64,000 nt of DNA from Leptolyngbyaceae cyanobacterium (lineage in GTDB: Bacteria > Cyanobacteriota > Cyanobacteriia > Cyanobacteriales > Aerosakkonemataceae): contig DATNQN010000022.1 of the NCBI GenBank assembly GCA_036703985.1, positions 62,001-126,000 on the forward strand, read 5' to 3'. Under the pieces are notes generated by a model that was not told where the DNA came from, made no database searches, and saw nothing but the letters and a program-made list of their open reading frames with translations. The stretch's first letter is position 1. Each line of letters starts with the position of its first letter. The position numbers and the translations under genes were made by a program. This document shows, piece after piece, positions 44,405-53,967 of this stretch.

Positions 44405-45259
44405 TTAATCGACTCGTTCTAATTGCCAAAGAATTTGATTTCCTTCTCGGCGCACCCGCGACACTACCCAGTTACGCCAAACCCAATTGTCACCCCGACT
44501 GGTAACTGCACTGGTGTGGATATCCATTAAATCTGCTAATTCGGAACTGGTAATGAGGTAGCCCGACTTTGCGATGTCATCAGCGATACGTAAAACTTCT
44601 ATGAGATTCCGCAACTGAGTGACTCTATTTTCGCTAGATATGTTGTCAATTATTTCAGTCGAAGAATGAGTGTTGGAATCGGTCATAGTTAAGTTGGAAG
44701 TGGTAACGTCAGAGGGTACATCACTGGATTGTAACTTTTGGTAAACGCGATCGTTTGTTGCCTCTGAACTAAATGTCTCGGATTTGACTGATTGTTGGAG
44801 AGCGGGGATTTTACCACAAGCAAAGGCACGAGCGATCGCATCGCAGCGATCGTTACCTCGATCGCCAGAGTGACCCCGTACATACTGCCACTCTACTTGT
44901 CTGGAATTGAGGGTATCAAGGGTTTCCCACAAGTCTTGGTTGAGGACGGGTTTACCTTGAGAGGTTTTCCAGCCTTTCTTTTTCCAGCCTTTCACCCATT
45001 CAGTAATCCCTTTTTTGAGATATTCGCTATCGGTGTAGAGGGTGACGGATTCAGTTTGCCCTTTGGCTGCTAGGAGTTTTAAAGCGGCGATCGCAGCTTG
45101 CATCTCCATTCGGTTATTAGTGGTTTGGGATTCTTGACCACCAATTTCGTAAACAGAGCCATCATTATAATAAGCTACCACACCCCAACCGCCAGGGCCG
45201 GGATTGCCGCTACAGGCTCCATCAGTGTAAAGTTTTTCGATTTTAACCACAGAAGACAT
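44405..45259 (-). CDS. rnhA: Ribonuclease HI with C-terminal extension
   Basis: RNase HI cuts RNA in RNA-DNA hybrids. The N-terminal 150 residues form a complete RNase H domain: D13 in YTDGACSGNPGPGGWG, the glutamate in NNRMEMQAAI, the aspartate in LYTDSEYL and the last in NDRCDAIARAFA. A disordered linker (155-205) and a C-terminal domain (210-284, LRNLIEVLRIADDIAKSGYLITSSELADLM) follow; the latter looks like a winged helix. At 284 residues it is nearly twice the E. coli length. The tnpB element ends only 8 nt upstream of the ATG. Confidence 0.93.
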   Translation of the reverse strand: MSSVVKIEKLYTDGACSGNPGPGGWGVVAYYNDGSVYEIGGQESQTTNNRMEMQAAIAALKLLAAKGQTESVTLYTDSEYLKKGITEWVKGWKKKGWKTSQGKPVLNQDLWETLDTLNSRQVEWQYVRGHSGDRGNDRCDAIARAFACGKIPALQQSVKSETFSSEATNDRVYQKLQSSDVPSDVTTSNLTMTDSNTHSSTEIIDNISSENRVTQLRNLIEVLRIADDIAKSGYLITSSELADLMDIHTSAVTSRGDNWVWRNWVVSRVRREGNQILWQLERVD

Positions 45260-45332: not shown

Positions 45333-46598
45333 CTAAAACAAGGATAATTGTATTCCTTGAAAACCCCAAGCTTCAGGCTTCACAGGTTGGGCAACCCCTT
45401 GACCTCCACCCGCAGTTTCGATGAGTCCCACCGCTTGTAATGCTTTATTTAATATGTTGATAGCAGCATTTTCATCACGATCTAAAATCAAGCTGCATTT
45501 AGGGCAACAATGAGTTCTAACTGACAAAGTTTTCGGAACCTTCACCCCACAACCAGAACAATCCTGCGATGTATTATGTGGATTCACTTTAACAATGTGG
45601 ACTCCGCATTTTACTGCCACTGCTTCCAATATTGTTATAAATTGACTCCACGCAGCATCAAGAATTGATTTAGCTAATTTACTATTTCTAGCTAAATTTC
45701 GTACTTGCAAATCTTCAACAGCAATTAAGTCATACTCCCTCACTAATTGATGAGCAGTTTTATAATGAAAGTCTTTCCTTTGTCGTTGAATACGTTGATG
45801 TATCCTAGCTATTTTATTCTGCTGCTTTTTGTAACTATTCGAGCCTTTTTCCTGACGTGCTAAAAACCTTTGTTGACGTGCTAAATGATTTTGTGCTTTT
45901 CGGTATATTTGTTGAATTGGTACAACTTCACCATCCGATGTTGTTAAAAATTCCTTCAATCCAACATCAATACCCACATAAGTTTTAATTGGATCGATTG
46001 GTTTGGGACTAGGGACTGTTTCATCTTCCACGCTAACTGAGACGTACCAACCGTCAGCTTTTTTAACTATTGTTGCTGTTTTTAAAACCAAACCATCTGG
46101 GATAGGGCGATGAACAATAACTGAGATTTCACCAATCTTACTTAACTTAAGAATCCCATTATTAAGATGAGCGCCAGCCTTAGCACAATTGACTCTAGGA
46201 AAGGTAAATGAACGTAGTTCACCTACTTTCTTAAACCTCGGTCTTCCCCCACGTTTACCTGATTTATCAGGTTTGCTCCATCTGTCCCAAGCTTTATCTA
46301 ATCGTTTGAGATTTTGCTGTTGGACATCGTGATAAATATCTTGATATTCTGGGAATAATTCTTTGGTCTGTTTAAGCAGTCCTGCTTGAAAATTATAATT
46401 AGGGAATTGTAAGGGAATTTCCCCAATTGGTTGTGAAACTAATGAACATCTATCAATACTGCATCTAGTACGACTCAACCAGTCAAAACGTTGCCCCAAA
46501 CAATAATTGTAATGACGACGCAATAGTTCTAACCACTGCATCATCATTATTTCTTGTTTTGGATTTGGCTTAATTTTGTACTGGTAGGTTAATAGCAT
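45333..46598 (-). CDS. tnpB: TnpB RNA-guided endonuclease, intact
   Basis: TnpB proteins are Cas12-like RuvC nucleases guided by an RNA from the element's right end. About 421 residues from the ATG; a TTG 9 bp earlier is in frame. RuvC residues are all present: D211 in YVGIDVGLKEF, E295 in AVEDLQV and D375 in DRDENAAIN. The zinc ribbon is CSGCG...CPKC. The N-terminal MLLTYQYKIKPNPKQE and the RGGRPRFK region are family-like. It is not decayed, unlike the remnants at 31.1 and 60.6 kb. Confidence 0.95.
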   Translation of the reverse strand: MLLTYQYKIKPNPKQEIMMMQWLELLRRHYNYCLGQRFDWLSRTRCSIDRCSLVSQPIGEIPLQFPNYNFQAGLLKQTKELFPEYQDIYHDVQQQNLKRLDKAWDRWSKPDKSGKRGGRPRFKKVGELRSFTFPRVNCAKAGAHLNNGILKLSKIGEISVIVHRPIPDGLVLKTATIVKKADGWYVSVSVEDETVPSPKPIDPIKTYVGIDVGLKEFLTTSDGEVVPIQQIYRKAQNHLARQQRFLARQEKGSNSYKKQQNKIARIHQRIQRQRKDFHYKTAHQLVREYDLIAVEDLQVRNLARNSKLAKSILDAAWSQFITILEAVAVKCGVHIVKVNPHNTSQDCSGCGVKVPKTLSVRTHCCPKCSLILDRDENAAINILNKALQAVGLIETAGGGQGVAQPVKPEAWGFQGIQLSLF

Positions 46599-46680
46599 AA
46601 TTCTCAAAAAATGCTACTGTTATTATATACTAAAAATCATGATTCGCTCAACTCAATTTATATTTTGGTCGCCATTCCTC

Positions 46681-46753: not shown

Positions 46754-49609
46754 TTATCTTCCCACGATCGTAAAAGTAGCCCAGTAGTAAGGATGAGCGT
46801 AAGGAGGCTGAGGCGAATTTATTTTATCGGGGTTTCCTTCAATGTACATTCCTTGAATATTTAAATATTGACTGACAGCCGGATCTCGATCTGCTAACTG
46901 GGCGGAAGTTTCTTTATACCATTGAACTAGTTCGGTATAGGTGACGGTACGCAGCCAATTTCGCGCCTGTTTGAGTGCTTGTGGTGGTGAAACGTTGGCT
47001 TTGAGATGGCGGTAAAATTCGATCGCGAGCAGGGCAGTTGAGTTTTCCGGTACAGTCCACAGCGTACTGAGTACGTGAGCTACACCTTTCCACGCAAAGC
47101 CAGTCGCTAAACCTACGTATTCGGTGGCGATGGTTTGGTGATTTGCGATCGCGGTTTCGCAAGCTGTCAGGCAAACTAAATGGTAATTTGTCAGCGGTAA
47201 TTGACAAATTTCGTCTAGAGTCAGTCGGTCTTGACCGCTTAAGTATAAAGTCGATCGGCTGGGAATACTGTAGCTATAATCACCATGTCCCGTGAAGTGA
47301 AAAATCCCGTAATCACCTGACAAAGCAGCAATTACTTTTTCTTTCGTAGCCTCGTTATCGATCAAGCGAGTGGAATGCTCGAACATTTGACTAATCGCAC
47401 TAGCCTCTATTTCCGCATACTCCAGCGGCGCTAATCCTTCGCTGTTCGGGACTTCTACGCTCAATAAGCGATCGATTTTAATTGAATTTTGGCCAGATAA
47501 ACCAGTTTTGGCACTTGGTAAATAAGTAACTGTAAAATCATCGGGAAATAGATAATGCAGAGGCAATCGATGTAAATCGCGATGGGGAATTAAAACTATT
47601 TGTTCGATCCCGGAAAGTGCAGCTATTACTTCAGAAATATCGAGAATATTACTTAAATGAGTGAGAGTAGCGTCAAATTCTTGCCGCCACAGATGATTTT
47701 CTTGCTCGTTAGGTGGCAACTGGGAATATTCCTGATACTTTCGATCCCAATCTTTGAGCCAGTTTTCTAATTCTACTACCCTCAGGGGAAAATTCGTATC
47801 TTCCGCGATCGGTGTTTCTGGCAAAACTATAGGTTCCGCCAAATCGTGTTGCAGAATAAAAGTAGTTAAGGCGCATGGACTGAGATGCCAATAAACGATG
47901 GCAGTAGTAGGATTAAGTAATTGTTGAATTTCCGACCAATCAGGAGAAGGAATATCTTCGTTCCAATCATTTAAAATCCAACTTAAGCAAGAATTTTTAT
48001 TTTTTTCTGCCAGTTCTAAAGCTTGAATTATTTGACCGGAACGCACCAACAAATCTACTTTAAGTTGACCAAAAGAGATAAATTTAATTGCTAGTTGTTT
48101 TTTTTGCGGTTCGGCAAATCCCTGTTCGCTTAGCAAGCGTTTCAATAAGGTTGAACCGCGTTGTTCAAATTCTTCGGATTCTGAGGTTTCTCCTAAAATT
48201 AAAAGAGCTTTTAAGGAATCTTGTAAAACTTCTAAATGCCATTCGGGAAAATTTTCTTTAGTGATAGCTTTGAGAGCCTCTCGATATTCTGCTAATGCTT
48301 TTCGGCAATATTCTAAGGGTTTTGTATCGATCCGACTTTGATTATAGTAAGCATTACCCAGACATAAATGTAAGATTCCCCAACCTTCTGGTTCGGTTTC
48401 GGGATGAATGTATTTTAATCCTTCTTGATAGCTAGCTAATTCTCCTTCGTAACCTCTTTGTTTCAAAGCAGGATTTTGGGTGGAAATCAAGCTTAAAGAA
48501 GCAAATAGAGGATCGCAATTAGCCGAGTTCGCGGCTGCTGCACCGCGATTAACCCAAGCTACCCAGACATCGAGTTTGATTGCTAATGCTTTATCATAAT
48601 TTGCGATCGCTTCCTCGTCCCGTCCTAACGCAATGAGCGCATTCCCTCGGTTAAGCCATATTAAGTAATAGTTTGGGTTAAGTTCTATTGCTCGATCGTA
48701 AAATGCGATCGCTTCTTCAAATTCTCCTAATTGATATTGTTCAAAACCTTGTTGAAACCAAGCTTGAACTTGCATTTCATTGCTACTTACTTGACCGCTT
48801 TCATTTTCAGCAATTATCGATGTATCTTCGTTAGTATATTGATTGAATTCTGCTTCAATCACATCTGGTATACTGCTTACTGTTTCCGGATTTTCATTTA
48901 TATTAAATTGAACGTTACTACTATCATCTAAACTCGCTTTATTTTCGGCTTCTCCTTGATTAATTAATGCCTGAATAATACCTTGAGGATCGTTAGTTTG
49001 AATCTGCAATACCTCAGACATTTGTTGCGCCAACTCGGTATCTTGTTGTAAGATTTCCCACAACTGATCCAGGCTAATTGCTTGCGGTTCAACCGTCATT
49101 TCATATCCTGCCGGATCGAGAGGTGCTGCTTCCGGAAAATTCAAGTTAGTTTGAATTGGTTGAGCGAATGATTGCCTGTTACCGCGATATAATAATTGAT
49201 TACCAATTTCACCCGCAACTTCTCCAATTTCTCCACATCCTAATGCTTGTAATTGCAGCATTCGCACGGCTAATTCTTGATTTGGTGCAGGCGACGCCAG
49301 CAATCTCTCCCCAAAACCGCGCAGCCAAACTATCCATTGTTCTTCAGTGGTGCGTCCTTCTAAATCTGCGAAAAATTTGCCAACTCGCTGTTGTTGCCAT
49401 CCATGCGATACCCCTTCCAACAGTTGCATGAATAAAAATTCATAATCAGAATTTTCTAAAGGACGAGGCGGTTGTGCTTCTCTGTGTTCTTCGCTTGAAG
49501 ATAAGTAAGTTGATTTCCGCCTTCTTGTAGAGGATGATTGGCTGGAAGTATGCGATCCAAACAAGTGTCGAAAGAATTGAACGATAGCTTGCCAAATCCG
49601 TCTAAACAT
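46754..49609 (-). CDS. TPR protein fused to a CHAT-type protease domain (paralogue A)
   Basis: 951 residues. Order: aromatic/basic amphipathic N-terminal helix (RRIWQAIVQFFRHLFG), Ser-rich linker, the shared DYEF-QLLEGV-HGW domain (about 53-143), an acidic linker, TPR units (about 265-460) and a C-terminal CHAT domain (about 620-951). The CHAT catalytic pair is H775 in FHFTGHGDY and C817 in CLTACETA, 42 residues apart. CHAT proteases are caspase relatives that cut partner proteins on activation. Two paralogues with the same N-terminal domain and a caspase-like gene lie directly upstream on the same strand. GAGAGG precedes the ATG. Confidence 0.92.
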   Translation of the reverse strand: MFRRIWQAIVQFFRHLFGSHTSSQSSSTRRRKSTYLSSSEEHREAQPPRPLENSDYEFLFMQLLEGVSHGWQQQRVGKFFADLEGRTTEEQWIVWLRGFGERLLASPAPNQELAVRMLQLQALGCGEIGEVAGEIGNQLLYRGNRQSFAQPIQTNLNFPEAAPLDPAGYEMTVEPQAISLDQLWEILQQDTELAQQMSEVLQIQTNDPQGIIQALINQGEAENKASLDDSSNVQFNINENPETVSSIPDVIEAEFNQYTNEDTSIIAENESGQVSSNEMQVQAWFQQGFEQYQLGEFEEAIAFYDRAIELNPNYYLIWLNRGNALIALGRDEEAIANYDKALAIKLDVWVAWVNRGAAAANSANCDPLFASLSLISTQNPALKQRGYEGELASYQEGLKYIHPETEPEGWGILHLCLGNAYYNQSRIDTKPLEYCRKALAEYREALKAITKENFPEWHLEVLQDSLKALLILGETSESEEFEQRGSTLLKRLLSEQGFAEPQKKQLAIKFISFGQLKVDLLVRSGQIIQALELAEKNKNSCLSWILNDWNEDIPSPDWSEIQQLLNPTTAIVYWHLSPCALTTFILQHDLAEPIVLPETPIAEDTNFPLRVVELENWLKDWDRKYQEYSQLPPNEQENHLWRQEFDATLTHLSNILDISEVIAALSGIEQIVLIPHRDLHRLPLHYLFPDDFTVTYLPSAKTGLSGQNSIKIDRLLSVEVPNSEGLAPLEYAEIEASAISQMFEHSTRLIDNEATKEKVIAALSGDYGIFHFTGHGDYSYSIPSRSTLYLSGQDRLTLDEICQLPLTNYHLVCLTACETAIANHQTIATEYVGLATGFAWKGVAHVLSTLWTVPENSTALLAIEFYRHLKANVSPPQALKQARNWLRTVTYTELVQWYKETSAQLADRDPAVSQYLNIQGMYIEGNPDKINSPQPPYAHPYYWATFTIVGR

Positions 49610-49879
49610 TTGCCACCTCTCTTATCTTGTTGTTCTAATTTTATAAGTATTTAGGAGTTATTCGATTTTAAATTATAGATTTTAGATTGGCTTTTAGATA
49701 AAATAGAAAATTTGAAGTAATATCCCAAAACTTTTCTTGTTTCTTGTCCCAGTTGAGGGGAACTATACTATTTTTGGTTTTTCCCAGCATTCTGAATGGT
49801 TTTATCTATTTATTACTTCCTTCGATTAATGATAACTTCATATTCAGTCATCCCATTGATGGGTGAGACTAATCTAAAA

Positions 49880-51232
49880 TTAATTGCTTGATTCTAAAGC
49901 CCGATCGTAGCTTAACTGTGCTTCTGCTTCTCTTCCTAATTTTTTAAGAGCATTACCTCGATTGTGCCAAGCTTCTGACAAGTCAGGCTTGAATTCCAAA
50001 GCTTTTTCATAATTGAAAATTGCTTCTTCAAATCGTTCTAAGCTAAATAGTACAGTACCTCGATTATTCCAGGATTCTACCTTATCCGGTTTGATGAATA
50101 AGGCTTTGTCGTAACAATCGATCGCTTCTTCATATTGTGCTAATTCTCTTAATGCGTTACCTTTATTATTCCAAATTTCGTGAGATTTTGGTTCTAATTG
50201 CAATGCTCGATCGTAACTTAAAATGGCTTCTTGTATTTTACCCAATTTAAATAATGATATTCCGCGATTGTACCATGTTTCGTACTTGTTTTGGTTTAAT
50301 TCTAAAGCTTTATCATAATTAATAACTGCTTCTGCATAGCGCTCTAGATTTCTTAAAACAGCCCCTCGATTATTCCAGGTATCAGGACAATTTGGTAGAA
50401 GATTTAAAGCTTGGTCATAACTTGCGATCGCTTCTTCGTAAAATCCCAAATCTTTCAATGCCAATGCTTTGTTATACCAAGCGTCGTGGTTATTCGGTTG
50501 GATTGATAAAACTTTTTCATAGTTACTTACGGCTGCTACAAGATTTTGCTGTATATATTGTTGATTGGCTTGATTTAACCATATTTCAGCTTGTATATCC
50601 CGGCTATCCATCGCCAGGAAATTACGCATTGCTTCAGCCAGATTTTCATCATTTAGTAGTCTCAAAATTTCAGATTGACTAACAATTTCTATGGTGGGAG
50701 TTTCAGTTTTATTTAAAATATTAGATTGGTTTGAGTATGAAGAAATTGGTAATATGGCGGTTGGTTCGATTTCTTGAATTTGTGATGCTGCTACCTGGGT
50801 TAAAATATTTTCACCAATTTGTTGAGAAATCTTTCCCAATTCTCCACAATCAAGTTCTCCTAATAGAATCATCTGTTTGGCAAGTTGCCGATCGTGAGGG
50901 GAATTTTCTAGTGAGTTTTTACCGGAAATTTGTAACCAATTCACTAATTGATTCGTGCTAGTTCTCTTGTTTAAATCTGCTAAAAACTTGCCGACTCTTG
51001 CGCTGTCCCAACCATGTGCTACTCCTTCGAGGAGTTGTAAAAAAAGGAATTCGTAATCTTTATCTGTTAAAGGTTTAACTATTTCTATTTGGCTGGGTTT
51101 TGCGCTCGGATTACGCGATCCTTTATTTACTGTTGTTGATGATGGAAATACCCATTTTAATAAAGCTTGAAACCATTTCAGTAGCGATCGCACTAGCCTG
51201 CGATCGGGATTTTGCCTGATTTGCCTTCGCAT
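49880..51232 (-). CDS. TPR protein with the shared N-terminal domain (paralogue B)
   Basis: 450 residues. A basic/aromatic N-terminal segment (VRSLLKWFQALLKWVF) and linker precede the shared domain (about 57-148; DYEFLFLQLLEGVAHGW, then VGKFLADLNKRT, LDCGELGKISQQIG). A short motif LLNDENLAEAMRNFL, also present in paralogue A, follows. Six to seven TPR units of 34 residues (WYNKALALKDLGFYEEAIAS and similar) run to the end. No catalytic domain is present. It lies 270 bp before the CHAT gene. It is probably a scaffold, sensor or competitor for the CHAT protein's partner. Confidence 0.9.
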   Translation of the reverse strand: MRRQIRQNPDRRLVRSLLKWFQALLKWVFPSSTTVNKGSRNPSAKPSQIEIVKPLTDKDYEFLFLQLLEGVAHGWDSARVGKFLADLNKRTSTNQLVNWLQISGKNSLENSPHDRQLAKQMILLGELDCGELGKISQQIGENILTQVAASQIQEIEPTAILPISSYSNQSNILNKTETPTIEIVSQSEILRLLNDENLAEAMRNFLAMDSRDIQAEIWLNQANQQYIQQNLVAAVSNYEKVLSIQPNNHDAWYNKALALKDLGFYEEAIASYDQALNLLPNCPDTWNNRGAVLRNLERYAEAVINYDKALELNQNKYETWYNRGISLFKLGKIQEAILSYDRALQLEPKSHEIWNNKGNALRELAQYEEAIDCYDKALFIKPDKVESWNNRGTVLFSLERFEEAIFNYEKALEFKPDLSEAWHNRGNALKKLGREAEAQLSYDRALESSN

Positions 51233-51363
51233 CTTCTCTCCCCTTGGCGTGGCTTGATTTAGATTGTAGAGAAATATGGGGACGGGGAGTAAGGGGGATG
51301 GAGTGATGGGGGAATAGGCAAAAGTATTTTATCTAAAAGTGGCTAGTCCTCGATCGGCTATTT

Positions 51364-52461
51364 TTAATTGCCAGTTCCCGGTTTTGCTTTAAAAGCTTGT
51401 GCTTTGTTCCAACTGTCGATCGCTTCTTCGTTTCGTCCTAAGTTACTGAGCGCTACGCTGCGGTTATACCAAGCTTCGTAGCGATCGGGTTTGATTTCGA
51501 TCGCTTTATCCCAACTGGCGATCGCTTCTTCTAATCTTCCCAAATTTCCCAGCACCAAACCTCGATTAAACCAAGCTTGATGATCTTTCGCTTCCAGCGC
51601 TACAGCTTGATCGTAAGCACCCAGCGATTCTTCTAGGCGTCCGACATTTCCCAGCGCTACTCCCAAGTTATACCAAGCTTGTTGATAACTTTGTTGAAAT
51701 TCCAAAGCTTTCAGATAACTGGGAATGGCATCTTCCATTCTTCCCAATTTAAAAAAGGCATTGCCTCGATTATTCCAAGCTTCGTATTTATCTGGTTTAT
51801 ATTCCACTGCTTTATCGTAACTGGCGATCGCATCTAGTATGCGTCCTAATTTAAGCAAAGCATTGGCTCGGTTATACCAAACTTCGTGGGCTTCCGGGAG
51901 GATCGCCAAAGCTTTATCGTAACTGGCGATCGCTCCTACATAATCTTCTATATTAAATTGTTGGAGTCCTTGGTAAAACCATGCTTGCGCTTCTTGGGGA
52001 TCGCCAGCATCCATTTCCAAGTCATTTTCTTGTAATTGGGGAGTCTTTGCCAATAACTTAGTACCGATTTGTTTGGCAAGTTCGCCGAATTCTCCACAGC
52101 CTACATTACCCAGATGCACCATCCGGTTAGCTAGCTGAGTATTTGGATTAGTAGAAGTTAGTAATCGATCGCCAAAATTACGTAACCACTCAATCCATTG
52201 CGCTACCGTAGTACGTTCTGCTAGCGCATCAAAAACTCGCAAAACTTGTTCCTGACGCCACCCATGCTCGACCCCTTCCAATAGCTGCATGAAAAAATAT
52301 TCGTAATCAGCATCCGTAAGAGGCTTGTTTTCGATCGTGCTACTAGGTTTTGGCGATTCACTTGTTTGACGATCGCCAAACCAAAGCCTCAACCATTTTC
52401 CCAGCTTTTGCTTGACCATACTGTAATTAGATCGCCAAATTCGCCCTATCATTTTTTCCAT
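51364..52461 (-). CDS. TPR protein with the shared N-terminal domain (paralogue C)
   Basis: 365 residues. Amphipathic N-terminus (KLGKWLRLWFG), linker, shared domain (about 49-139; DYEYFFMQLLEGVEHGW, RTTVAQWIEWLRNFG, VGCGEFGELAKQIG), then six TPR units to the end. It is closest to paralogue A in the shared domain (RTT, WLRxFGxRLL, GCGExGE). It lies 131 bp upstream of paralogue B and 225 bp downstream of the caspase-like gene. Confidence 0.9.
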   Translation of the reverse strand: MEKMIGRIWRSNYSMVKQKLGKWLRLWFGDRQTSESPKPSSTIENKPLTDADYEYFFMQLLEGVEHGWRQEQVLRVFDALAERTTVAQWIEWLRNFGDRLLTSTNPNTQLANRMVHLGNVGCGEFGELAKQIGTKLLAKTPQLQENDLEMDAGDPQEAQAWFYQGLQQFNIEDYVGAIASYDKALAILPEAHEVWYNRANALLKLGRILDAIASYDKAVEYKPDKYEAWNNRGNAFFKLGRMEDAIPSYLKALEFQQSYQQAWYNLGVALGNVGRLEESLGAYDQAVALEAKDHQAWFNRGLVLGNLGRLEEAIASWDKAIEIKPDRYEAWYNRSVALSNLGRNEEAIDSWNKAQAFKAKPGTGN

Positions 52462-52686
52462 TTTCGCACACCTTCATCCCAGATTTTATTCAACGATACC
52501 GAAGGGGCGTTGTTTGCCAGTTACACTTCATCTAATTCGGTCTTAACTTCTACCAATCCGTATAAACATATATAAAGGAAGTGATGGTGAAACGATGGAA
52601 ATGACGATGTGAGGAGATCGGTAAAATATCTACAATTTTTTAAACCTTTCCCTAACCCCTACCGCTAGCCCCTTCCCCTTCTCTTC

Positions 52687-53967
52687 TCACTCCCAATACC
52701 CGCTCTCGCACTTGATTAATTTGTCGAGAATGGCGATCGCTTCTTTATCCGACGAACTACGGATTTGCTTTTCTGCGCCGATATTGGTTAATTCCATCCC
52801 CAGACGGATGACATAAGCTTTATCTTCTTCACTGTTTACTTTGGTTGTATCCAATCCCTGTAAGTTAGCCAAAAAAGACTTTTGTAAGCTGAAGCCGAAC
52901 TTTTTCGCGATCGAATTAACCACGTAAGCTTGTTCCGGGCGAGCGGTTGGTAAAATATCGGCTAGCGGACGACTGAAAATCGTTTGTTGGGAAATGCGAT
53001 CGGTCTTACCTTGCAACCAAGCTTCTAAAGTAGAAATCGGCCAATCTACGGATTTTTCGTCTACTTTCGCAAAAGCATGAGCTTCTGCGAAAGAAACCCG
53101 TCCATCTTGGTTGTAATCTGCTGATTCCACTGCTTTACCCAGCCGATTGCGACCACTTAACCCAGCAAAAAAACTAGAACTATAATCTTGATAGTCGGCT
53201 TCATTTACTTCCGGCGAACAGCCAACCGAAGGGCGCGTTTTCACCGTAGCGAAAAAACCACAACGAGTTTGCATCGTTACCGGACGTTCGGGATCGCCAC
53301 TTTGGTAAATAAAGTTAGCAAATGAACCGGAAAAACACTGACTCATCACGGTAACTACCGATTTGTCTGGAGGCAGCTTGTCCAGCAGGTTGGCAAATCC
53401 CTGCACGGTTAGCGACTCCTTATTCCACATCAAAAAGGCGTTATTATTTATATCCTCATCGTTAGGTATGCCATGTCCCGTGAAGTAGAAGAAAATAGAT
53501 TTAGAGTTACGATCGAGATTCTGAAGGGAGTTTTGTAAATTGGCCATCGTGGATGCACCTTTGAGATTGGGAATCTGCGGCGCTTTAAACTGCTGCTGTC
53601 CTTGGGGATCGAGATAGCGAACGGTTGCTGTTCCATCATTGCCGTTGGCAAATAAGGTGGATGCCTTAGCGGGATCGAATCCCAAAGCGTTTAAGGTGCG
53701 CTGGAAATAGAGGATGTTTTTTTCGATCGCGATTTCGTTTTGCTCTGGTTCTGGCCCACCACCGATCGCCAAAAAATGTGTTTTCCTGGCTTGACAAGTA
53801 GCTGGTAACTGTGTATTGAATCCGAGCCGGTCGGGATTGATGGCTGGAAATGGCAGTGCGATCGATACCCCAAAGGCTAAACTAGTAAAGCTGCGAAGCT
53901 GGCGTGCAAAATATTCCATAGTGCTTTGTATTGAACAATAGGACTTAAAATGAGCGGGCGAACTCAT
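52687..53967 (-). CDS. Caspase-like peptidase (C13/C14 clan CD) with an EF-hand loop
   Basis: 426 residues. The N-terminus is probably a signal peptide or anchor (about 17-45, after which the clan CD fold starts at THFLAIGGGPEPEQNE). The catalytic histidine is H165 in FYFTGHGIP and the cysteine C211 in VMSQCFSGS. A canonical EF-hand calcium loop, D284 to E295 (DYNQDGRVSFAE), follows, so activity may be calcium-dependent. It is the first gene of the minus-strand array with the three TPR paralogues. A later in-frame ATG (53919) would shorten the leader. Confidence 0.85.
   Translation of the reverse strand: MSSPAHFKSYCSIQSTMEYFARQLRSFTSLAFGVSIALPFPAINPDRLGFNTQLPATCQARKTHFLAIGGGPEPEQNEIAIEKNILYFQRTLNALGFDPAKASTLFANGNDGTATVRYLDPQGQQQFKAPQIPNLKGASTMANLQNSLQNLDRNSKSIFFYFTGHGIPNDEDINNNAFLMWNKESLTVQGFANLLDKLPPDKSVVTVMSQCFSGSFANFIYQSGDPERPVTMQTRCGFFATVKTRPSVGCSPEVNEADYQDYSSSFFAGLSGRNRLGKAVESADYNQDGRVSFAEAHAFAKVDEKSVDWPISTLEAWLQGKTDRISQQTIFSRPLADILPTARPEQAYVVNSIAKKFGFSLQKSFLANLQGLDTTKVNSEEDKAYVIRLGMELTNIGAEKQIRSSSDKEAIAILDKLIKCESGYWE

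What the first reader, a model, noticed from the sequence alone, without database searches (positions are those of the whole stretch)
46754..53967. Four-gene TPR / CHAT / caspase-like array with a shared undescribed N-terminal domain
Three neighbouring genes share a domain of about 90 residues (DYE-FxQLLEGV-HGW, later RTx, W-WL, GCGExGExAxQIG) preceded by a short aromatic/basic amphipathic helix and followed by TPRs. One is fused to a CHAT protease (H775, C817). A clan CD caspase-like gene with H165 and C211 leads the array. All are on one strand with gaps of 131-270 bp. The combination of two cysteine proteases with scaffold paralogues resembles protease-switch or suicide systems (compare TPR-CHAT/Csx29 of craspase, known from the literature), but no CRISPR is present. 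I do not recognise the shared domain as a named family.
Basis: partly seen in the sequence, partly recalled or inferred. Interest (0 to 1): 0.9.

Follow-up and report, generated by a model that had tools for sequence, protein, structure and literature searches.

The report
Cyanobacterial scaffold and CHAT protease array
A cyanobacterium carries three neighbouring genes sharing an unnamed, probably membrane-hugging helical domain, one of them fused to a caspase-like protease; relatives of that fused protease elsewhere sit in an apparently undescribed three-gene protease and membrane-protein operon.

Summary
A (DOM-TPR-CHAT), B and C (DOM-TPR) share a ~95-residue domain ("DOM") unnamed in Pfam and NCBIfam; D is clan CD-like. 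The two-protease machine is only partly supported. DOM occurs in 94 of 105 sampled genomes of the order and 2 of 281 others, mostly without CHAT (99 of 124 ORFs). Its simplest form is one ~150-230-aa gene, often beside dnaX or rnhA; the array is a local expansion there. D adjoins DOM in 7 of 7 D-bearing genomes of one family, in none of 43 elsewhere, and looks exported. DOM-CHAT pairing recurs. DOM-TPR-CHAT genes without a dnaX, rnhA or DOM neighbour in view keep the His/Cys pair in 20 of 28, and most of those intact head an operon, TPR-CHAT > Y > X (X: membrane protein), for which I found no name; X is in 222 of 388 order genomes. A belongs to this CHAT subfamily, keeps its dyad, lacks Y and X beside it. 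At dnaX/rnhA 36 of 50 CHATs are dead or gone. Best explanation: membrane-tethered DOM scaffolds regulating a TPR-CHAT protease. New variant of a known kind.

The parts
46754..49609 (-). Gene A: N-helix, DOM, three-helix C-motif, TPRs, CHAT protease (951 aa)
49562..49609 (-). A residues 1-16: basic/aromatic amphipathic helix, hydrophobic moment 0.84, shuffle p 0.01
   Evidence: helix 2-16 in the model
49184..49459 (-). A residues 51-142: DOM, five predicted helices (residues 53-146)
48944..49087 (-). A residues 175-222: conserved C-motif (three predicted helices), weakly like Nif11
46757..47668 (-). A residues 648-951: CHAT domain; H775 codon 47285-47287, C817 codon 47159-47161
49880..51232 (-). 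Gene B: N-helix, DOM (50795-51070), TPRs; its DOM is a long branch of unsure place
51364..52461 (-). Gene C: N-helix, DOM (52045-52320), TPRs; orthologues in relatives of the family
52687..53919 (-). Gene D: clan CD-like peptidase, probably exported; H165 and C211 (numbered from 53967) at 53473-53475 and 53335-53337; EF-hand-like loop
54053..56173 (+). dnaX, divergent neighbour of the site in 25 of 50 DOM loci with enough flank
44405..45259 (-). RNase HI with an extra C-terminal part; downstream neighbour of the site (it or its small homologue in 24 of 48 loci)
45333..46607 (-). IS605-type OrfB/TnpB transposase between A and RNase HI

Best explanation
The array is a lineage-specific tandem expansion, at the dnaX-rnhA site, of an unnamed cyanobacterial adaptor protein. 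DOM proteins are held at the cytoplasmic face of a membrane by the N-terminal amphipathic helix (inferred), and the helical DOM mediates contacts between paralogues (inferred). B and C are protease-free TPR scaffolds. A is a TPR-CHAT cysteine protease with an intact His-Cys dyad (shown in sequence), held off until its TPRs bind a ligand or partner (inferred from TPR-CHAT proteins in general). Its relatives lie in an operon-like row TPR-CHAT > Y > X, where X is a membrane protein with a C-terminal two-helix anchor (arrangement shown; anchor predicted); the likeliest role is that the protease cuts or releases Y or X to change the membrane (inferred). A has no Y or X beside it, so it acts in trans on X copies elsewhere in the genome (at least three exist; one sits beside a fourth DOM-TPR gene) or as a scaffold. 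D is a separate, exported protease whose adjacency is confined to this family.
For: DOM in 94 of 105 order genomes, 2 of 281 others. Forms of ~150-230 aa, several beside dnaX or rnhA. A's DOM groups with short DOM-only proteins of its family (97*), and in family f6 short and CHAT forms at dnaX group together (99*), so DOMs at one site resemble each other. 25 of 25 long DOM ORFs of the first set match CHAT, one as a remnant. Dyad intact in all 5 of A's clade. A's CHAT falls with all 30 DOM- or X-linked CHATs tested, apart from 29 other CHATs of its own genome. X in 19 and Y in 20 of 22 DOM-CHAT loci with intact dyads. 14 of 20 X loci have TPR-CHAT upstream with Y between, seven with a 4-bp CHAT/Y overlap. 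C-terminal hairpin in 19 of 21 X. CHAT-Y-X stands directly before rnhA in L133 and L279. In the own genome X starts 154 bp after the fourth DOM-TPR gene.
Against: No interaction, localisation, cleavage or transcript was tested. Of 50 long DOM genes linked to dnaX or rnhA, 26 have a broken dyad and 10 no CHAT or a remnant, so proteolysis is dispensable at this site. Five of 33 X-linked CHAT ORFs lack DOM. Ten of 43 X have no CHAT upstream; two of the ten (L032, L035) begin at the edge of the stretch held. No clear fold match for DOM. A second CHAT of A's type, without DOM, is in the genome (L287), so A is not the only candidate partner of X.
Confidence: 0.45

Rival explanations
1. Housekeeping scaffold: DOM proteins serve a core process tied to the dnaX-rnhA site (replication, division or envelope), and CHAT, B, C and D are incidental lineage-specific additions.
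For: Near-universal in the order, also in a 2.8-Mb genome, G147; dnaX in 25 of 50 and rnhA or its small homologue in 24 of 48 loci; in eight Chamaesiphon-type loci rnhA starts 1-7 bp after the DOM stop codon (L019-L025, L027); CHAT decays repeatedly, most of all in the copies at this site by plain counts.
Against: Neighbourhood alone shows no function; A's dyad is kept in 5 of 5 while other lineages lost theirs; DOM is also on 28 of 33 X-linked CHATs.
Confidence: 0.3
2. Suicide or defence module: DOM acts like an effector-associated (death-like) adaptor that assembles A, B, C and perhaps D for regulated killing after infection.
For: Architecture fits the EAD principle as described in PMC8195603 (passages read): small, mostly helical terminal domains, several per locus, locally related, coupled to effectors including proteases. 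PADLOC's BovA model matches the CHAT part of A (E 2e-8). A membrane protein, X, is the usual neighbour of relatives. One Y-X pair (L282) lies beside C14-NACHT and C14-iSTAND genes.
Against: No Pfam EAD model among the hits; PADLOC names nothing else than TPR and weak coiled-coil or caspase matches; the site is a housekeeping one; D looks exported.
Confidence: 0.17
3. Coincidence: four unrelated genes of abundant cyanobacterial families happen to be neighbours.
For: The genome has 40 CHAT matches; D is unlinked to DOM outside the family.
Against: A, B and C share a domain found only four times in the genome, three of them here, and the order D-C-(B)-A recurs in relatives L005, L007 and L169.
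Confidence: 0.08

Closest known systems
Csx29 / TPR-CHAT of Craspase (type III-E CRISPR)
   Same: TPRs followed by a C-terminal CHAT protease with His/Cys; NCBIfam NF041237 aligns over the CHAT part.
   Different: 45 bits against a cut-off of 300; no CRISPR array in 40-60 kb; N-terminal DOM; usual neighbours of relatives are Y and X. Csx30 and Cas7-11 as Csx29's partners are from listings.
Effector-associated domains (EADs) and bacterial death-like domains
   Same: Small helical, terminal domain, in several genes of one site, fused to a protease, locally homogenised.
   Different: No Pfam EAD model among the hits; near-universal in one order; preceded by a membrane-type helix; often at dnaX or rnhA.
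HetF (Anabaena CHAT protein of the divisome)
   Same: Cyanobacterial protein with CHAT and TPR domains, linked to membranes.
   Different: In HetF the CHAT part is aa 1-555 and there is a TM domain (PMC8406250, passages and legend); A has CHAT at the C-terminal end and no separate TM segment.
Orthocaspases / legumain-like C13 peptidases (gene D)
   Same: His/Cys dyad; a close homologue passes the Pfam C13 and C14 cut-offs.
   Different: Signal-peptide-like start and EF-hand-like loop; window copy below both cut-offs.

Membership tests
CHAT proteases (PF12770) | Pfam CHAT above gathering score | tested here: met
   156.5 bits against 24
CHAT proteases (PF12770) | Catalytic His and Cys present | tested here: met
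   H775, C817; kept in 5 of 5 clade members
CHAT proteases (PF12770) | Proteolytic activity | not testable with these tools
   needs an assay
Csx29 (type III-E) | NCBIfam NF041237 above cut-off | tested here: not met
   45.4 bits, cut-off 300
Csx29 (type III-E) | CRISPR array beside the gene | tested here: not met
   window 40-60 kb holds only repeats of the TPR coding period
Effector-associated domains | Match to a named EAD/bDLD Pfam model | tested here: not met
   none among the 21 families listed for 60 DOM members at E <= 1; sequence-to-profile only, no profile-profile test
Effector-associated domains | Small helical terminal domain, several copies per site, coupled to effectors | tested here: met
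Effector-associated domains | Homotypic binding | not testable with these tools
   no complex prediction or assay available
Effector-associated domains | Known fold of the death-like superfamily | tested here: inconclusive
   best VIA Z 5.7 to a designed repeat; nothing stands out
HetF | CHAT in the N-terminal part plus a TM domain | tested here: not met
   CHAT at 648-951 after the TPRs; the one hydrophobic stretch lies inside CHAT
Clan CD peptidase C13/C14 (gene D) | His/Cys dyad | tested here: met
   35 of 35
Clan CD peptidase C13/C14 (gene D) | Pfam model above gathering score | tested here: inconclusive
   window D below (19.3/22.8 and 14.4/21.4); homologue in L017 above both
Clan CD peptidase C13/C14 (gene D) | Caspase-haemoglobinase fold | tested here: inconclusive
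   model of pLDDT 42, unusable

The most novel reading that the evidence does not exclude
The window's cyanobacterial order carries an undescribed membrane-tethered protease switch: DOM adaptors assemble TPR-CHAT proteases that act on Y and on the hairpin-anchored membrane protein X, with several copies in many genomes. One branch settled at the dnaX-rnhA site, where it was repeatedly turned into pseudoproteases. In the window's family that branch stayed catalytic, lost Y and X, expanded into an array and gained a second, exported protease as neighbour.
Probability: 0.3. Interest if true: 0.8.

Novelty: new variant of a known kind. Interest (0 to 1): 0.6.

Why it matters
It gives an unnamed, order-wide cyanobacterial domain a family, a locus and likely partners, and it exposes a three-gene protease and membrane-protein row whose X occurs in 222 of 388 sampled genomes and whose X and Y reach no Pfam or NCBIfam cut-off (four of each tested). 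This one genome has 40 CHAT matches, and few CHAT substrates are known in cyanobacteria (my recollection); a row in which protease, small protein and membrane protein travel together supplies testable substrates. The repeated loss of the catalytic pair also offers a natural series from protease to pseudoprotease.

Tried and rejected
Conserved two-protease unit: rejected; D adjoins DOM in 7 of 7 D-bearing genomes of family f1 but in 0 of 43 outside (my comparison by eye of the positions; at least four of the 43 D genes, in G213, G414, G471 and G617, lie within 1 kb of a contig start, and one genome, G655, has no DOM match).

Link between dnaX/rnhA linkage and a broken dyad: counts differ (linked 14 intact, 26 broken, 10 absent; DOM neighbour only 1, 4, 1; no such neighbour in view 20, 8, 4), but on the tree only 5-6 independent pairs exist and the sign test is flat (median p 1), so I claim repeated change (10, at least 8 forced by starred branches), not a cause. 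Of the four 'absent' rows without neighbour, L237 was cut by my own fetch and L015 and L018 have short flanks; L202 and L208 (broken, no neighbour) begin near a contig start.

VMAP-M8 (Pfam, best E 0.0053) as a relative of DOM: 2 of 60 members only, no match in 60 genomes; dropped, although warns that nothing rang anywhere. Nif11 likeness of the C-motif: hhalign probability 77%, P 2e-5 in a single comparison, DOM as a control gave 0.4%, and weak Pfam hits in 2 of 22 (best E 0.084); left as a lead.

Fold searches for DOM: no Foldseek match at E <= 0.001, best VIA Z 5.7. Death-like or EAD folds did not appear in those lists, which excludes nothing. Structure of D from four sequences: pLDDT 42, not used. 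PDB sequence searches: nothing convincing for DOM or D. 'A is the only X-type CHAT in its genome': rejected by L287. A sigma-70-type promoter scan of the array found fewer sites than shuffles (9 against 18.1) and was not used. Literature searches did not show a description of this system in their listings; the library holds open-licence papers only.
Full report
WHAT IS THERE. In transcription order: D (clan CD-like peptidase), C and B (DOM-TPR), A (DOM-TPR-CHAT). The three N-terminal domains share 33 invariant columns. Pfam finds CHAT (E 1.3e-45) and TPRs, and only weak scattered hits over the domain; NCBIfam and PADLOC name nothing there, though PADLOC's BovA matches the CHAT part of A (E 2e-8). 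I call the domain DOM.

ANATOMY OF DOM PROTEINS. An alignment of A's N-terminal part with 21 relatives shows four parts: a basic/aromatic N-helix, DOM, a WEYxGPD-type linker in many relatives, and a C-motif. AlphaFold (22 sequences) gives helix 2-16, five DOM helices between 53 and 146 at high confidence (mean pLDDT of the ten-residue blocks from 51 to 140: 93-98), a disordered stretch, and three C-motif helices between 180 and 224. The N-helix is amphipathic beyond shuffles in 159 of 185 distinct DOM ORFs; over all 185 the median moment is 0.76, net charge +4, aromatics 3. Membrane tethering is inferred from this. No known fold stands out.

DISTRIBUTION. A scan of one genome per species found 53 relatives, all in records whose titles name cyanobacteria (its short patterns favour close relatives). 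In 386 genomes of the phylum DOM occurs in 96: 94 of 105 of the window's order (counted by eye from the listing) and 2 of 281 others (for most genomes it scored at most 12 candidates, so these are lower bounds). Of the 53 loci, 52 gave a DOM ORF; dnaX lies upstream in 25 of 50 and rnhA, or a ~90-aa homologue of its C-terminal part, downstream in 24 of 48 with enough flank. The simplest forms (146-230 aa) have no TPR or CHAT. The window array occupies this dnaX-rnhA site. I read it as local expansion of a conserved single gene.

TREES. A 100-column DOM tree is poorly resolved (13 of 59 branches starred) but has telling clades: A with its family's CHAT forms and the short DOM-only proteins of two Phormidium-type genomes (97*); C with its orthologues (99*); in f6 the short DOMs together with the DOM-CHATs beside them (99*). 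So DOM-CHAT pairing at the site arose, or was homogenised, more than once (CHAT label: 6 changes, 4 forced). B is a long branch of unsure place. In G447 (genus g146) the place of A after D and C is held by a 231-aa DOM-only gene; in G459 of the same genus such a gene lies on another contig.

CATALYSIS. In the first set all 25 DOM ORFs of 850 aa or more match CHAT (L137 as a remnant) and none of 99 shorter ones does (some short ones are cut by fetched ends). In a larger set of 88 DOM ORFs of 700 aa or more, 73 have an assessable dyad: 35 intact, 38 broken. Copies with dnaX or rnhA in view: 14 intact, 26 broken, 10 without CHAT or with a remnant; nine of the ten come from genera g10 and g20 of f6, the tenth is L039. 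Copies with only a DOM neighbour: 1 intact, 4 broken, 1 absent. Copies with no such neighbour in view: 20 intact, 8 broken, 4 absent (one cut by my fetch). The dyad label changes 10 times on the tree, at least 8 on starred branches; association with linkage vanishes when only independent pairs count. Window A and its four clade-mates all keep FTGHG and the catalytic cysteine; A is 63% identical to its nearest relative in that tree. I infer an active protease kept by selection.

THE PARTNERS ELSEWHERE. Clustering the neighbours of 22 DOM-CHAT genes with intact dyads (the 20 without neighbour in view, plus L133 and L215) showed two recurrent families downstream on the same strand: Y (128-177 aa in the 13 first clustered) and X (428-514 aa). 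X occurs in 19 and Y, by profile, in 20 of the 22; L215, of the window's array type, has neither, and L218 ends at the contig end. Starting instead from 20 X genes picked from the top of the X list, 14 have a same-strand TPR-CHAT upstream with Y between, seven of them with a 4-bp CHAT/Y overlap; six have none. In all loci held, 33 of 43 distinct X have CHAT upstream (28 of the 33 with DOM) and 34 have Y. These loci were chosen through DOM-CHAT or top X scores, so the fractions are not population estimates. X has two hydrophobic segments at its C-terminus in 19 of 21 by a simple hydropathy scan. Of four X and four Y tested, none reaches a Pfam or NCBIfam cut-off, and PADLOC gives only weak hits for two X (best E 3.3e-4). 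X occurs in 222 of 388 order genomes; in 292 phylum genomes all 36 with X are of this order.

HOW THE WINDOW FITS. In a tree of CHAT domains, 29 other CHATs of the window's genome form one side (100*) and all 30 DOM- or X-linked CHATs, A included, the other (100*) (29 of the 39 other CHAT matches; the program warns that long branches meet at this split). Of the remaining matches one, L287, is of A's type without DOM (363 bits against 79 with the other model), and L286 is undecided (70 against 72). In L133 and L279 the order is TPR-CHAT, Y, X, rnhA, then a glycosyltransferase gene (rnhA and the transferase of L279 recognised by eye): the same site as window A, rnhA and the transferase. A therefore looks like the CHAT of such a row after loss of Y and X; a TnpB gene lies in the gap here. 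The genome keeps at least three X genes. One lies 154 bp after a fourth DOM-TPR gene (558 aa) that ends before CHAT, as if CHAT and Y had been deleted there. A could serve that X in trans; this is inference.

GENE D. Homologues occur in 50 of 388 order genomes. D adjoins a DOM gene in all seven D-bearing genomes of the family and in none of 43 others. Its homologues tend to start with a short basic segment and a hydrophobic stretch, and 31 of 35 have an EF-hand-like loop. I read D as an exported, perhaps calcium-binding, protease; no signal-peptide program was available, and my simple hydropathy scan found no TM-strength segment in window D. Its structure could not be modelled.

MECHANISM. Shown: shared domain, site, fusion, dyad, gene order; predicted: hairpin in X, amphipathic helix. 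Inferred: membrane tethering, DOM-DOM contact, TPR-gated protease, cutting of Y or X, action of A in trans. The EAD principle as described in PMC8195603 (passages) and PMC7159879 (passages) is the nearest published idea; DOM works like an EAD in architecture but matches no EAD model. HetF differs in having its CHAT part at aa 1-555 (PMC8406250, passages). Pseudo-variants are common in cyanobacterial orthocaspases, 133 of 473 (PMC8283722, passages), so dead CHATs fit a wider trend. A CHAT gene, all2170, is one of two genes mutated in a phage-resistant Nostoc substrain (PMC10811720, passages); whether it is of this family was not tested.

Noticed in passing
window 45333-46607; L007 3610-4869: IS605-type TnpB/OrfB genes stand at different points of the same array in two relatives (after A here, between D and C in L007).
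   Followed up: partly
L263 4763-7990 (own genome, contig C29): A fourth DOM-TPR gene (558 aa) that stops before CHAT, followed after 154 bp by a full-length X gene.
   Followed up: yes
window 44405-45259; L051 9653-9928: The C-terminal ~90 residues of this RNase HI have a counterpart in other genomes as a separate small gene at the same place; no Pfam family at E <= 0.01.
   Followed up: partly
L282 2132-10501: A Y-X pair without CHAT beside a C14-NACHT-HEAT gene and a C14-iSTAND gene, domains named in published conflict systems.
   Followed up: partly
L136, L137, L226, L228-L233: Nine DOM-TPR genes beside dnaX in genera g10 and g20 have no CHAT or only a remnant; a tenth (L227, dnaX not seen in the stretch) too.
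   Followed up: yes
window 48944-49087 (A residues about 175-222): The C-motif behind DOM resembles the Nif11 domain weakly.
   Followed up: partly
L131, L132, L039: The divergent dnaX ORFs differ much in length (979, 1094 and 1030 aa against 706 here), perhaps inteins.
   Followed up: no
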